Source: a virus. Taken from it: DNA of 35,251 nt. Where the stretch lies: IMG/VR virus record IMGVR_UViG_3300048929_000773, positions 1 to 35,251 of that record. One strand, 5' to 3'. The position numbers were made by a program, and so were the translations under genes. Under the pieces are notes generated by a model. It had not been told where the DNA came from and ran no database searches. It saw only the letters and a list, made by a program, of their open reading frames with translations. Shown piece after piece: positions 6,963 to 11,594 of this stretch (its first letter is position 1; every line of letters begins with the position of its first letter).

Positions 6963-7343
6963 TTAGGATTGGAGAGGATAATCCTTCACCAATAGCGTGG
7001 CGGGAATATGCCACGTCGCTTCGAGCGCTCTGATCATCTTGAGGCTGAGCGAACGCTTGCGCGCCAGCACCTCGGATGCTCGTGATTTGCCCAGCAATTT
7101 CGCAAGGTCATTTTGTGTATGACCCTGAGCTTCCATTGCCGCCTCAATGGTGGCGACGGGATCGGGGCTGTCGATTGGCCAGCGTTCACGCTCGTATGCC
7201 TCGACCAGTGTCACCAGGACATCAAGCCGATCCTCTTCCGGGGAACCTTCTGGAAATTTCCAGAGGCGATCGATTTCCGCCATTGCGGCTGCGTGATCCG
7301 CATCGGTGCGGATGGGATGAATAGGGTGGATGTCCACGCGCAT
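6963..7343 (-). CDS. higA: HigA-type antitoxin, XRE helix-turn-helix
   Basis: 126 residues. The N-terminal half matches the HigA family preceding the toxin-binding region: IRTDADHAAAMAEIDRLW, then GSPEEDRLDVLVTLVEAYE and WPIDSPDPVATIE. The C-terminal half is the helix-turn-helix (QGHTQNDLAKLLGKSRASEV, then LARKRSLSLKMIRALE). Such proteins bind and silence the HigB mRNA-cutting toxin and repress their own promoter. The ATG at 7343 has GGAG three bases before it and a TATACT-like -10 just upstream, so it can be made from its own promoter. The gene lies downstream of the toxin as usual, but 191 bases away instead of nearly adjacent. Confidence 0.85.
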   Translation of the reverse strand: MRVDIHPIHPIRTDADHAAAMAEIDRLWKFPEGSPEEDRLDVLVTLVEAYERERWPIDSPDPVATIEAAMEAQGHTQNDLAKLLGKSRASEVLARKRSLSLKMIRALEATWHIPATLLVKDYPLQS

Positions 7344-7534: not shown

Positions 7535-7828
7535 TCAGATCGTCATCGGATCGATCTTATCGTATTCCTTGTGAGTTCCGATGAAACGAATGTAGGCGAT
7601 TTGTCGTTTCCATCTGAACATCACAACCAAACGGTAGTTCCCGCCTGAGATTTCGTATCGAACCCGCTCGCCGTCTAGGATTTTCGCTTTTCGGAAATCT
7701 TGAACTGCGTCAGCGGGGGTATTCCATTTGGCCCGGCTTGTGATGCCGTACCAGTGTTCTATCGAGGCCTTTGTTTCTGGATGTTTCTTGTAAAACTCGG
7801 TAAGCGTTGAGCGAGATATTACCCTCAT
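7535..7828 (-). CDS. higB: HigB-type mRNA interferase toxin
   Basis: 97 residues with the complete HigB_toxin pattern: MRVISRSTLTEFYKKHP at the start, EHWYG..., a K-x-x-x-L-D-G-x-R segment, SGGNYRLVVMF, and the highly conserved end IRFIGTHKEYDKID. The family is RelE-like and cuts mRNA at the ribosome; the basic/histidine residues of the last segment belong to the active site. The ATG at 7828 is chosen because GAAGGGG precedes it; a longer frame to 7867 overlaps the promoter. The promoter and two operators lie at 7879-7931. It should be neutralised by the gene at 6963-7343. Confidence 0.88.
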   Translation of the reverse strand: MRVISRSTLTEFYKKHPETKASIEHWYGITSRAKWNTPADAVQDFRKAKILDGERVRYEISGGNYRLVVMFRWKRQIAYIRFIGTHKEYDKIDPMTI

Positions 7829-7878
7829 GAAACCCCTTCGGGCTGGCGGTTGCGAGGCCGTGAACACCTCATGACCCC

Positions 7879-8577: not shown

Positions 8578-8778
8578 AATGCCCCTGATCGTATGCCCCA
8601 ATCGCGCGGGCCTTAATGCATTTCAGGTTTCCGATTCAATAAATACGGATAGGTCGGACACATCGCACAAGGCCGTCGAGATCACGATCGCCGCCAGGGC
8701 AGCCGATCGATACGCGAATTTCGTTGGTTTCGCCCGCGCTGCACAGCAGCCTGTCTGTCGCGAAAGATAAATATCGTC
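8578..8778 (+). promoter_or_regulatory. Upstream region of the rightward late genes
   Basis: No supported gene. A frame ending in the TAA at 8768-8770 covers most of it, but its beginning lies antisense to the secreted-protein gene and no start is evident. There is a TAAATA at 8640-8645 flanked by TCCG and CGGA, which lacks a start codon behind it, and the TAAATA site of the first late gene at 8768. Confidence 0.4.
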
Positions 8779-8782
8779 ATGG
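8755..8782 (+). promoter_or_regulatory. TAAATA start element of gene 8779
   Basis: TAAATA at 8768-8773; the A of ATG is six bases after its last base. CTGTCGCGA (8755-8763) can pair with TCGTCATGG (8774-8782) with one mismatch and three G-U pairs, placing the motif in the loop and the start codon in the 3' arm. There is no Shine-Dalgarno. Confidence 0.6.
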
Positions 8783-9018
8783 ATCATCTCTATGACGAAG
8801 ACGGACAGATCAGCATGTCCGCGAAGCTCTGGTGCCTCGATGTGTTCGATGGTCGCACCACGCTCCTTCCCAAACAGGAAGCCGATTTCCTATTCCTTCT
8901 TGCTGAGCGCCGTGATGGACGCTTCTACGCCAACGCGACCGAGGCTTACGTTCTCGATTTCCAGCGGGTTCAAGCCCGCTTCGCCATGATGGTGGATGAA
9001 CTCGGCGATGACGAATGA
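8779..9018 (+). CDS. Hypothetical protein, first gene of the late region
   Basis: 79 residues, acidic, soluble, not recognised (starts MDHLYDEDGQ, ends VDELGDDE). It has no Shine-Dalgarno. Its ATG instead follows TAAATA at the spacing seen for other late genes. It overlaps the next small gene, and the four genes up to the HNH endonuclease are tightly coupled. Its place before the HNH and terminase genes suggests a role in late expression or packaging, but no motif supports a specific function. Confidence 0.6.
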   Translation: MDHLYDEDGQISMSAKLWCLDVFDGRTTLLPKQEADFLFLLAERRDGRFYANATEAYVLDFQRVQARFAMMVDELGDDE

Positions 9019-9211
9019 CATCATTAAGGCCGTCTCCATCGTGAACGGTTTGGTCTTCGGCGCGGCTGGCTTCCTGTCGCTTATGCCGATCGTGCCTATC
9101 GCCCTAGATGTAGCGTGCGCCCTGACCGCGACAAGCATGCTCACCATCGCTGGGTGGACTACGGCGTTCACGATCGGTGCAGTGCGCAAATCCCGGAAGG
9201 AGAAGCCATGA
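9008..9211 (+). CDS. Small membrane protein
   Basis: 67 residues with two hydrophobic segments (about residues 9-29, SIVNGLVFGAAGFLSLMPIV, and 35-57, ACALTATSMLTIAGWTTAF), followed by a basic tail (VRKSRKEKP). The ATG at 9008 overlaps the end of the previous gene; an in-frame ATG at 8996 would add four residues. Topology and tail are holin-like, but the lysis genes are at 34155-35082, so another role is equally possible. It overlaps the following gene by four bases. Confidence 0.55.
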   Translation: MTNDIIKAVSIVNGLVFGAAGFLSLMPIVPIALDVACALTATSMLTIAGWTTAFTIGAVRKSRKEKP

Positions 9212-9399
9212 AGGCGCCATCTCGCGAGGACGTCGCGCAGATCATCCATCGGCACATCAATTCGTGGTCGCCAGGTATGAGCCCCGACAAGGCGGTCGCA
9301 AGCATCTACGCCATGGCCGAGAGCCTGATCGACTATTGCCATCTGCACTACGTGCCGCCGCCCGTTCTCCCTGGTCTGCCCGGTGGCGACAACCTGTGA
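9208..9399 (+). CDS. Small hypothetical protein (63 aa)
   Basis: 63 residues, mostly helical with a proline-rich end (VPPPVLPGLPGGD). The pattern of REDVAQIIHRHI and DKAVASIYAMAESLID suggests a short helical pair. I do not recognise it. The start is well supported by GGAAGGAG before ATG and a four-base overlap with the upstream stop. Its own stop overlaps the GTG start of the HNH gene. Confidence 0.6.
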   Translation: MKAPSREDVAQIIHRHINSWSPGMSPDKAVASIYAMAESLIDYCHLHYVPPPVLPGLPGGDNL

Positions 9400-9719
9400 G
9401 GCGAGACGATCGATCCGATGAAGCGAAGGTCTATCGTCGGCTTTACAACACGAAAGCATGGCGCGAGCGGAGGTTGGCCCTCCTGCGGGCGGAACCGCTC
9501 TGCCGGTACTGCATGGCGATAGGTCGCGTGAGCGCCGCCACGGTGGCCGACCACATCGTGCCGCATCGTGGCGACCTGGACCTGTTCGCCGGTGAGCTTC
9601 AGCCCCTCTGCCATTCATGCCACTCGGCGGTGAAGCAGCGTGAAGAGCAGGGCGGCTATCATGGTGCCGTGGACCTGGACGGCTACCCGATCGACCCGAA
9701 CCACCCGAATTCCGCGTAG
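9396..9719 (+). CDS. HNH endonuclease
   Basis: 107 residues. A zinc-binding pair C36-x-x-C39 and a second pair C72-x-x-C75 frame the HNH core, which includes D52-H53 (ADHIVPHRG), H57 and H76 (LCHSCHSAVKQ). The N-terminus (VYRRLYNTKAWRERR) is typical of phage HNH proteins encoded next to terminase genes, which assist DNA cutting during packaging in HK97-like phages. The GTG at 9396 overlaps the previous stop (GTGA). The small terminase would normally follow at once; here 1.9 kb of leftward cargo lies between them. Its TAG stop and that of the convergent reverse transcriptase are three bases apart within CGTAG-CGG-CTACG. Confidence 0.88.
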   Translation: MRRDDRSDEAKVYRRLYNTKAWRERRLALLRAEPLCRYCMAIGRVSAATVADHIVPHRGDLDLFAGELQPLCHSCHSAVKQREEQGGYHGAVDLDGYPIDPNHPNSA

Positions 9720-9722
9720 CGG

Positions 9723-10469
9723 CTACGGAGAGTTTCCCTCAGAGACGCTGGCGCGATAATTTTCAAATCCCATCACTGACAATTCCGATCGTTCTTCGGA
9801 ATAAAAATGCTCAATCCGCGACGGCCGGACAAACGTGCTACCGTTCCTTAGGTCGCAATTGAAGAGGTCTATTCCGGTTGCTGGTTCGCGGATTTTCAAA
9901 GGGCTGATTTGAAAGTTTGCCTCAGCGATTTTCTCTTTGAGGATGCCGAACGCCTCGCTGAGGGCCTTTTCGTCATCCGATGATAAAGAGATGTCATCGA
10001 CGTACATCGACACGGCTACCGAACTGGAGGCGTCGAGTTCCCGCAAATAGGCGCCCACGCCTGAGGTGAGAAGAACCAGGGTGGCGAGAATGGGCGATTG
10101 TTTGAAGCCGTATGGTAGGGCGTAACTTGGGCCATCCAGTGGGTTCTTGACGCACGACCACTTCGCGTAGTGACGGGCCCTTGCGATCCCAATTTCCGCC
10201 AATGCCCGCTGAACTCTGTTGCGAGCTATGCTGTAGAAAAAATCCGAGAGATCGGCGCGGGCGAAATAATGGTGCTGCCGGTGATGGTGGAGCGCCGCGA
10301 CGTGCCCGCCGCTCTTCCGTAAATGATAGACGAAGCTATCAAATTCGTACGCTGATTCCACCTGCGTCTTAACATCCACGCCGATTTTTGCGCCTATCTC
10401 ACTCGGGGCAAATACTCGCTTCCCATTCCGGACATATGAGTATGCGTAATTGTGAAACTGTATGGCCAT
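9723..10469 (-). CDS. Compact reverse transcriptase, class unassigned
   Basis: 248 residues. The polymerase core is clear: first catalytic aspartate in YFARADLSDFFYSI (residues 68-81), LPYGFKQSPILATLVL (118-133, the x-Q-S-P motif) and YVDD at 156-159, followed by ISPLKI (188-193). There is no maturase, thumb/X or nuclease domain, so it is far shorter than group II intron proteins. The Q-S-P motif and the lack of an accessory gene and of template/variable repeats argue against a diversity-generating element. It resembles small stand-alone reverse transcriptases of bacterial defence or unknown groups. It overlaps a small hydrophobic-protein gene upstream and is followed by the end of the HNH gene. 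It has no TAAATA element, so it is cargo, perhaps active in the lysogen. Confidence 0.88.
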   Translation of the reverse strand: MAIQFHNYAYSYVRNGKRVFAPSEIGAKIGVDVKTQVESAYEFDSFVYHLRKSGGHVAALHHHRQHHYFARADLSDFFYSIARNRVQRALAEIGIARARHYAKWSCVKNPLDGPSYALPYGFKQSPILATLVLLTSGVGAYLRELDASSSVAVSMYVDDISLSSDDEKALSEAFGILKEKIAEANFQISPLKIREPATGIDLFNCDLRNGSTFVRPSRIEHFYSEERSELSVMGFENYRASVSEGNSP

Positions 10470-10581
10470 TGTAGTTCACGACCTTGTTGAAGATATCGAT
10501 GCTAACGTTGACGATCTCAAGGAGAGCCAGCGCAGCGCCTAACCATTCAACAAGGCCGGTGCGGGAAAGAAACTTTTCCAT
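10399..10581 (-). CDS. Small hydrophobic protein overlapping the reverse transcriptase gene
   Basis: 60 residues from an ATG at 10581 that has an excellent ribosome site (GGAGG seven bases upstream). Residues about 10-32 (LVEWLGAALALLEIVNVSID) are hydrophobic and may span or touch the membrane. The end contains two cysteines (ILICPEWEASICPE). It overlaps the start of the reverse transcriptase gene by 71 bases in another frame, so the two are probably translationally coupled and function together. A longer frame from a TTG at 10785 exists, but its start is poorly supported. No family is known to me. Confidence 0.55.
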   Translation of the reverse strand: MEKFLSRTGLVEWLGAALALLEIVNVSIDIFNKVVNYNGHTVSQLRILICPEWEASICPE

Positions 10582-10785
10582 AAGCACCTCCATAGCTAAT
10601 CGCGCTGGCAACCTACAACTCCTTAGCAGTGGAGCCGTGAACCAAGAGAAGTCCCAGATTGCCAGGATTTCCCGAAGCTGTTCATACGGAAAGTACGAAA
10701 AGTATTTCCCGTGTCGAACAGCCATTGTGAGTGGCAGGTTATCGCCAGTGCACGACTGTCCTATGGGAAGATATTCAAAAATCAA

Positions 10786-10979
10786 CTCCTACTGCGTGTG
10801 GAAGTCGATGCGACGCTAAATAAGATCGATTGCAGTCGGCTCACTGGTGTCGGCATCGTCAGGCCATGGCCAGATTGCCCAATCATTCAGCGGGGAGGGG
10901 GTGGTTCGACCACTGGGAGCCTCGGGCCGGAGACCGGCCGCCAAGTCAAATTTTAACGGCCGCAGTTCAGCGGGATATT
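10786..10979. ncRNA. Structured intergenic stretch next to the reverse transcriptase (candidate ncRNA)
   Basis: No convincing gene. Two compact perfect hairpins occur, GTGGT-tcg-ACCAC at 10901-10913 and GGCCGG-aga-CCGGCC at 10925-10939, next to a G-rich run at 10891-10904. Reverse transcriptase defence units and retrons commonly carry a structured RNA next to the enzyme, so this is a candidate template or partner RNA on either strand. This is inference from position and structure only. Confidence 0.3.
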
Positions 10980-11567
10980 TTAGAACACGCCGACCTGCGT
11001 CCTGCCGCTGACTTCATCGTCTTTGAACGTCACGATGATGGTCCCGCGCTTTCCTTGCCAACGATAGCTCCCGGTGGAATAGCCGCCACTCGACACGTAC
11101 GATACTTCGTCTCCCATGTCGCCGAGGATGAATTCGACTTCCTTCATTTGCATGCCGATACGGATTTGCGAATAACCCGCTCTGGTAATTCCAGCGCGGG
11201 TAAATCCTGCCAATTTCATACCAGCTTCGAAGGTGATGCCTTTTCGAAGCCTGAAACACGCCAGTTGCGCGTCGAGGTCCGTATCAAGATTTTCGCACGG
11301 ATTTCGTAACGCGTCGAAAAGCGCAGGGGCAACGAAGGTGGCATTCAACGCTCTACGGAGATTTATGATCTCCAAGGCTTTCAACGCCGTTTGTTGTTTG
11401 CATTGGGGATCGCCACAAGCATCTATTTGCGGCGTTACGCGCAGAATGTATCGCTCTTCGTCACGGGTAAGCCCGGCCATTCCGCCCGCGTGCGGCGTAT
11501 AGTCGCCGTAGCCGGTAGCAAACGTGAAAGCCGCAATAACAAGAGACGGAAAAATACTCGAAGTCAT
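10980..11567 (-). CDS. Secreted protein with C-terminal BamE/SmpA-like domain
   Basis: 195 residues. The N-terminus (MTSSIFPSLVIAAFTFATG) looks like a signal peptide. A middle helical region has two cysteine pairs (DACGDPQC and NPCENLD...LACFRL). The C-terminal about 65 residues fit the BamE/SmpA-like fold: YSQIRIGMQMKEVEFILGDM, a variable strand, SYRWQGKRGTIIVTFKDDEV. This fold occurs in outer-membrane assembly lipoproteins and in many envelope proteins of unknown role. I chose the ATG at 11567 (GGGGG ribosome site); a GTG at 11579 is an alternative. It is leftward, opposite to the terminase genes, so it is probably a lysogenic-conversion gene acting in the envelope. Confidence 0.65.
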   Translation of the reverse strand: MTSSIFPSLVIAAFTFATGYGDYTPHAGGMAGLTRDEERYILRVTPQIDACGDPQCKQQTALKALEIINLRRALNATFVAPALFDALRNPCENLDTDLDAQLACFRLRKGITFEAGMKLAGFTRAGITRAGYSQIRIGMQMKEVEFILGDMGDEVSYVSSGGYSTGSYRWQGKRGTIIVTFKDDEVSGRTQVGVF

Positions 11568-11594
11568 AGGCACCCCCACGCGTCATTAACACGC

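What the first reader, a model, noticed from the sequence alone, without database searches (positions are those of the whole stretch)
9723..10979. Phage-borne compact reverse transcriptase with an overlapping small hydrophobic gene
A 248-residue YVDD reverse transcriptase is coupled to a 60-residue hydrophobic protein and placed between HNH and terminase, a site where other phages have no insert. It is neither a group II intron nor a diversity-generating type by motif. Stand-alone reverse transcriptases of this size in bacteria are often antiphage systems. A reverse transcriptase plus membrane partner carried by a temperate phage could be an undescribed exclusion or abortive-infection unit.
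Basis: partly seen in the sequence, partly recalled or inferred. Interest (0 to 1): 0.8.

Follow-up and report, generated by a model that had tools for sequence, protein, structure and literature searches.

The report
Compact retron-like phage defence module
A phage carries a 1.2-kb cassette made of a structured RNA, a tiny membrane-type protein and an unusually small reverse transcriptase; it belongs to an undescribed, widespread relative of retrons, the bacterial elements that typically kill infected cells to stop phages.

Summary
The window encodes a 248-aa YVDD reverse transcriptase (RT; 10469-9723, minus) whose start overlaps a 60-aa hydrophobic ORF (10581-10399). A covariance model built without the window finds it there and nowhere else in the window (E 1e-13).

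The order ncRNA, small hydrophobic ORF, RT recurs in nearly all relatives examined: rhizobial plasmids, Klebsiella/E. coli P2-like prophages and other viral contigs. Plasmid copies sit beside AbiE, IetAS, Gabija, Septu and Hachiman genes. A close relative of this phage has an empty site, fixing the unit at about 9710-10889.

By profile, tree and fold the RT is nearest to retron RTs (weakly, sister to type VI). It is not a canonical retron: VTG is replaced by FN in 40/40 members, LPQG by LP[YF]G in 39/40, and the window lacks the AGC priming guanosine. In the gammaproteobacterial branch the ncRNA covaries with the ribosome-binding site of the small ORF (p at most 5e-5).

Most likely: a retron-like abortive-infection module with a small membrane peptide as effector. 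Function is untested. New variant of a known kind.

The parts
9710..10889 (.). whole cargo unit, present here and absent from the close relative L119
   Evidence: flanks 8768-9709 and 10890-10981 align to L119 (80% and 88%), unit replaced there by about 65 bp
9723..10469 (-). compact reverse transcriptase, 248 aa
   Evidence: RVT_1; family alignment; AF2 model pLDDT 94.6
9993..10004 (-). YVDD active site, residues 156-159
   Evidence: translation; both D invariant in 40/40 members
10399..10581 (-). small hydrophobic ORF, 60 aa, likely effector; overlaps the RT start by 71 nt
   Evidence: conserved position and hydrophobicity in the family
10579..10775 (-). ncRNA (msr-msd-like), full match of the covariance model R2 built without the window (match includes the ribosome-binding site and start codon)
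   Evidence: E 1.3e-13, only hit in the window; fold z -4.73
10743..10748 (-). a1 arm (CTGGCG)
   Evidence: pairs with a2, covarying
10605..10610 (-). a2 arm (TGCCAG)
10616..10637 (-). hairpin before a2 (CGGCTC ... GAGTTG)
   Evidence: covarying
10676..10723 (-). long central hairpin, candidate msd template
   Evidence: minimum-energy fold; role inferred
10739..10739 (-). position of the canonical retron priming G; A in this window (GATAACC)
   Evidence: G in 19/19 gamma and 9/14 alpha members, A in the window and 4 others
10587..10591 (-). ribosome-binding site GGAGG of the small ORF, predicted paired with CUUCC at 10766-10770
   Evidence: prediction; covariation in this branch only borderline

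Best explanation
A mobile, phage-carried, retron-like defence module (abortive infection or superinfection exclusion) of three parts: an msr-msd-like ncRNA, a small hydrophobic peptide as likely membrane toxin, and a compact RT. The RT binds the ncRNA through its stem-loops and copies its central part into cDNA, starting next to the a1/a2 stem. While the RT-ncRNA/cDNA complex is intact the peptide is silent, either held by the complex or, in the gamma branch, because the ncRNA pairs with its ribosome-binding site. A competing phage that disturbs the complex frees or de-represses the peptide, which damages the membrane and stops the infection. Shown here: the three parts, their conservation, the covarying RNA, the defence context, the empty site. 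Inferred: cDNA synthesis, membrane insertion, toxicity, neutralisation, trigger.
For: Same three-part order in nearly all relatives. Covarying a1/a2 stem and hairpin in both branches and held-out detection of the ncRNA. Gamma ncRNAs carry TTAG[C/G] right after a1, like the retron priming site (PMC6868368). RT nearest to retron RTs by PADLOC, PDB profile search, tree and fold. Intact catalytic residues. Neighbours AbiE, IetAS, GajB, PtuA, HamB. Prophage accessory sites, e.g. ogr to attachment site in E. coli P2-like prophages, and an empty site in L119. Type VI retrons, the nearest clade, also have a small hydrophobic ORF.
Against: No functional data. VTG is absent in 40/40 and the window lacks the priming G, so the chemistry may differ from retrons. 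The small ORF evolves fast and shows only modest third-codon-position excess (180/147/237). Hydrophobicity is borderline for a membrane segment in some members.
Confidence: 0.6

Rival explanations
1. DRT-like mechanism: the RT makes protein-primed, repetitive cDNA from the ncRNA, and that product with the membrane peptide gives defence, as in DRT10 (ncRNA, SLATT membrane protein, RT).
For: Same gene order as DRT10 (PMC12632851). Significant 9-nt tandem repeats in the central ncRNA of seven members. The window lacks the canonical priming G.
Against: RT scores to UG/DRT models stay well below retron models (about 34 against 60-80 bits), and DRT9 RTs fall outside in the tree. Retron-type a1/a2 stem and TTAGC. 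The window's own ncRNA shows no such repeats.
Confidence: 0.14
2. Retron-like element in which the small ORF is a leader peptide that couples translation to the RT, not an effector; the effector is the RNP itself or a host protein.
For: The small ORF overlaps the RT start and lies at a fixed distance in the window's branch; its tail beyond the RT start is not conserved; it evolves fast.
Against: Hydrophobicity far above background ORFs; a comparable ORF exists in type VI loci where it does not overlap the RT; ribosome-binding-site control by the ncRNA in the gamma branch points to a product whose dose matters.
Confidence: 0.13
3. A plasmid/prophage maintenance (toxin-antitoxin) element rather than an antiphage system.
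For: Carried by plasmids and prophages; a small toxin-like peptide under RNA/RT control fits a toxin-antitoxin logic.
Against: Clustering with several validated antiphage systems; retron relationship.
Confidence: 0.08
4. A decaying or non-functional RT remnant.
For: One homologue (L008) is broken; short C-terminus.
Against: Intact D, YxDD and fold, conserved family across Pseudomonadota and phages, covarying ncRNA.
Confidence: 0.03

Closest known systems
Type VI retrons (RT + HTH protein + small auxiliary protein; also reported in phages, PMC8541194)
   Same: RT clade nearest in the tree (support 63); a structured region, then a small hydrophobic ORF, upstream of the RT; carried by phages
   Different: No HTH gene; small ORF overlaps the RT; RT about 250 aa, not 280-310; 40-80 bits to the RT_VI model against 251-301 for type VI loci; VTG and LPQG lost
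Retrons in general (Ec86, Eco8, Ec78, Ec83)
   Same: RT fold, a1/a2 stem, TTAG[C/G] after a1 in the gamma branch, ncRNA plus effector-like ORF plus RT
   Different: VTG to FN, N of NAXXH to A, priming G missing in the window; effector is a tiny peptide
DRT10 (UG17 RT + SLATT protein + ncRNA; PMC12632851)
   Same: Order ncRNA, membrane protein, RT; tandem repeats in the RNA of some members
   Different: RT closer to retrons than to UG17; 60-aa peptide without SLATT domain; retron-type a1/a2 stem
Type I toxin-antitoxin systems (small hydrophobic toxins controlled by RNA; own knowledge)
   Same: Small hydrophobic peptide whose ribosome-binding site pairs with an RNA (gamma branch)
   Different: The RNA lies in the same transcript and comes with an RT

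Membership tests
Retron | structured ncRNA upstream with paired 5' and 3' ends (a1/a2) | tested here: met
   covarying stems; held-out model hits
Retron | priming guanosine in a conserved AGC of the msr | tested here: not met
   window has ATAAC; G present in 19/19 gamma (AGC or AGG) and 9/14 alpha members. The review notes retron Se72 as an exception (PMC6868368)
Retron | region X NAXXH motif in the RT | tested here: not met
   H in 40/40 but N replaced by A in 38/40; 14 of 16 validated retrons have NAXXH
Retron | VTG triplet opening region Y | tested here: not met
   FN in place of TG in 40/40
Retron | RT groups with retron RTs | tested here: met
   profile, tree and fold, but on a long stem (1.36) and below all known types in score
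Retron | production of branched msDNA | not testable with these tools
   needs cDNA sequencing and debranching
Type VI retron | RT of the type VI clade | tested here: inconclusive
   sister with UFBoot 63; RT_VI 42-80 bits against 251-301 for type VI loci
Type VI retron | HTH DNA-binding gene between small ORF and RT | tested here: not met
   small ORF overlaps or abuts the RT in the members examined, leaving no room; type VI loci have it
Type VI retron | small auxiliary protein | tested here: met
DRT (UG) systems, DRT10 in particular | RT of the UG group | tested here: not met
   UG models score far below retron models; DRT9 RTs fall outside
DRT10 | SLATT-domain partner protein | tested here: not met
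   no Pfam or PADLOC match for the small ORF
Group II intron RT | maturase-type RT and intron RNA | tested here: not met
   group_II_RT_mat 14 bits against cut-off 300; no Rfam match; group II RTs fall outside

The most novel reading that the evidence does not exclude
A retron-like element in which the ncRNA itself is the antitoxin: part of the msr pairs with the ribosome-binding site of the small membrane toxin (a covarying pseudoknot in the gamma branch; predicted extension of the a1/a2 stem in the window), so that reverse transcription, or its disturbance by a phage, switches toxin translation. This would merge type I toxin-antitoxin logic with a retron, run by an RT that has lost the VTG and LPQG hallmarks.
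Probability: 0.3. Interest if true: 0.85.

Novelty: new variant of a known kind. Interest (0 to 1): 0.66.

Why it matters
It adds a compact, phage-mobilised clade next to the known retron types, with a complete fingers-palm-thumb model in 248 residues and changes at motifs that are otherwise nearly invariant. PADLOC and NCBIfam models assign it to no type, and the E. coli copies are annotated only as an RT-domain protein and a hypothetical protein, so surveys probably miss it. Because the Klebsiella phage version is 99% or more identical to copies in 29 E. coli genomes, it can be tested directly in laboratory E. coli. It offers a minimal peptide effector, a testable RNA switch on toxin translation, and a small RT of possible use for making DNA in cells.

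Tried and rejected
Stand-alone RT: rejected, there is a conserved ncRNA. Known retron type by PADLOC/NCBIfam: rejected, scores far below those of true members. HTH partner as in type VI: none. Rfam: no match in the window or the E. coli locus. Ribosome-binding-site pairing in the window's own branch: not significant for the hairpin before a2 (p 0.21), only borderline for the a1 flank (p about 0.04). Sigma-70 promoter scan: none found. Small ORF as a protein query: uninformative. The window RT alone found nothing in viral contigs, whereas the family alignment found 33. Gamma covariance model does not reach the window's ncRNA, so homology of the two ncRNA branches rests on shared layout. Literature: no paper on this family found; Mestre 2020 not held.

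Full report
The observation. Window 9723-10469 (-) encodes a 248-aa protein with YVDD that matches RVT_1 (E 2.7e-14). The ORF 10399-10581 (-) encodes 60 aa with one hydrophobic stretch and runs 71 nt into the RT gene. Terminase, protease, capsid, tape-measure and tail-tip genes confirm a phage. The close relative L119 (terminase 93% identical) aligns on both sides but has about 65 bp in place of 9710-10889, so the cargo is a clean 1.18-kb unit. The next gene, 10980-11579 (-), lies outside it and is itself replaced by another gene in L119.

A family. Relatives 49-54% identical lie on rhizobial plasmids and in Defluviicoccus, Aminobacter and sphingomonad genomes; relatives about 30-38% identical lie in Klebsiella/E. 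coli P2-like phages, a Pantoea and a Roseomonas plasmid and most of 33 viral contigs. Frequencies are low: 5 of 397 Hyphomicrobiales, 2 of 385 Alphaproteobacteria, 7 of 398 Pseudomonadota and 34 of 5426 E. coli genomes, 29 of the latter at 99% identity or more to the Klebsiella phage copy. In E. coli C2 the unit lies between ogr and the attachment site at ssrA of a P2-like prophage.

The third component. Alignment of upstream regions showed a conserved non-coding block before the small ORF. In the gammaproteobacterial branch it reads CCTGACG-TTAG[C/G] ... GTCG(n)CGAC ... GCGC-TT-GCGC ... CGTCAGG. Its stems covary: 94.8% of cells paired, covariation score 0.325 against 0.173 in shuffles (0/500), slid controls 25-45% paired. 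In the window's branch the a1/a2 stem and the hairpin before a2 covary too (97.0% paired, 0.405 against 0.244, 0/500). A model built from 13 sequences without the window finds the window's ncRNA at 10579-10775 (-), E 1.3e-13, its only hit in 35 kb, with no hit in about 29 other retron, DRT9 and group II loci or in the empty-site phage L119. The gamma model finds four held-out members at E 0.002 or better and a fifth weakly (E 0.09), all just upstream of the RT, and no control locus. The window's RNA folds with z -4.73. The two branches do not find each other by model; their common origin rests on the shared layout.

The RT. Its best profile hits are retron RTs (PADLOC RT_IX 54 bits; a gamma member RT_VI 80 bits; PDB: Kva2, Ec86, Eco8). 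Known retron RTs score above 105 bits even against models of many other retron types, and type VI loci 251-301 against RT_VI. In a 73-sequence tree the 40 family members form one clade (UFBoot 100, stem 1.36) on the retron side; sister to type VI has support 63 only. The AF2 model (pLDDT 94.6) aligns over nearly its whole length with retron RTs: Ec86 Z 19.1 (rmsd 4.0, 235 residues), Eco8 18.8, Ec78 18.7, Ec83 18.6; DGR 17.7, group II 17.4, DRT2 15.9. The fold ranking is close, so it supports rather than proves the retron link. Signatures: FN replaces TG of VTG in 40/40 while all 33 reference RTs keep the G; LP[YF]G..QSP replaces LPQG..TSP (39/40 for Y/F); NAXXH survives as A...H.

The small ORF. 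It is present in nearly all members (42-75 aa), mostly overlapping the RT start, with a conserved NY at the end of its core; in the window's branch its ATG lies 109-115 nt before the RT. 29 of 38 pass a 1.6 hydrophobicity threshold against 10.6% of background ORFs. In L021 it is fused in frame to the RT. The third-codon-position excess is modest. Type VI loci hold a comparable small ORF, followed by an HTH gene that this family lacks; a paper on a Shewanella phage describes that three-gene type VI layout in phages (PMC8541194).

RNA and translation. In the gamma branch an msr segment is complementary to the Shine-Dalgarno region of the small ORF. Own pairs average -18.0 kcal/mol against -14.25 (sd 0.71) for permuted pairs, p at most 5e-5. 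A scan of the whole ncRNA with the Shine-Dalgarno stretch alone picks only this segment (z -5.7). In the window the site is predicted paired with CUUCC at the outer end of the a1/a2 stem (P unpaired 0.05), but covariation there is borderline (p about 0.04), so for the window this is only a prediction. The one search for retron papers that mention Shine-Dalgarno found none among those listed.

Context and function. Plasmid copies lie beside AbiEi/AbiEii, IetAS (two loci), GajB with PtuA, and HamB. This, the phage accessory sites and the retron relationship make antiphage defence the best reading; nothing here tests it. Whether the product is canonical msDNA is open: the window and four relatives lack the priming G, and several templates carry 9-nt repeats reminiscent of DRT10.

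Verdict. It works like a retron, and its RNA and RT fold agree with that, but three defining features (priming AGC in this window, NAXXH, VTG) were tested and not met. It is therefore described as a retron-like sister clade, a new variant of a known kind, and not filed as a retron type.

Noticed in passing
L025, L027, L031, L034, L041, L047, L048 (ncRNA, central part): Tandem repeats of 9 nt in the presumed template, not reached in 99-100 of 100 shuffles; copy number differs between close relatives (L031 against L047). Possible slippage or telomerase-like copying.
   Followed up: partly
L021:4824-5732: Small peptide and RT are fused in one reading frame in this member.
   Followed up: no
10890-10981: 92-bp block conserved (88%) between the window and L119, between the cargo unit and the next variable gene, close to terminase; could be a cos site or control region.
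   Followed up: no
10980-11579 (-): 199-aa gene with weak BLIP/BamE-like hits, replaced by an unrelated 113-aa gene in L119: a second cargo gene at the same site.
   Followed up: partly
6963-7343 and 7535-7867 (-): HigB-type toxin (PF09907) next to an HTH protein: likely a toxin-antitoxin pair on the same phage.
   Followed up: no
L055, L056, L057 (upstream of the type VI retron small ORF): In type VI retron loci a stretch just upstream is complementary to the region of the small ORF's ribosome-binding site (e.g. ATCTCTGAATG / CATTCAGGGAGAT in L055), so RNA control of the peptide may extend to type VI.
   Followed up: no
L008 (Rhizobium jaguaris plasmid): The RT reading frame is broken in this copy.
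   Followed up: no
L007 and L016: Near-identical loci that differ exactly at the priming-site position (ATAGCC against ATAACC).
   Followed up: no
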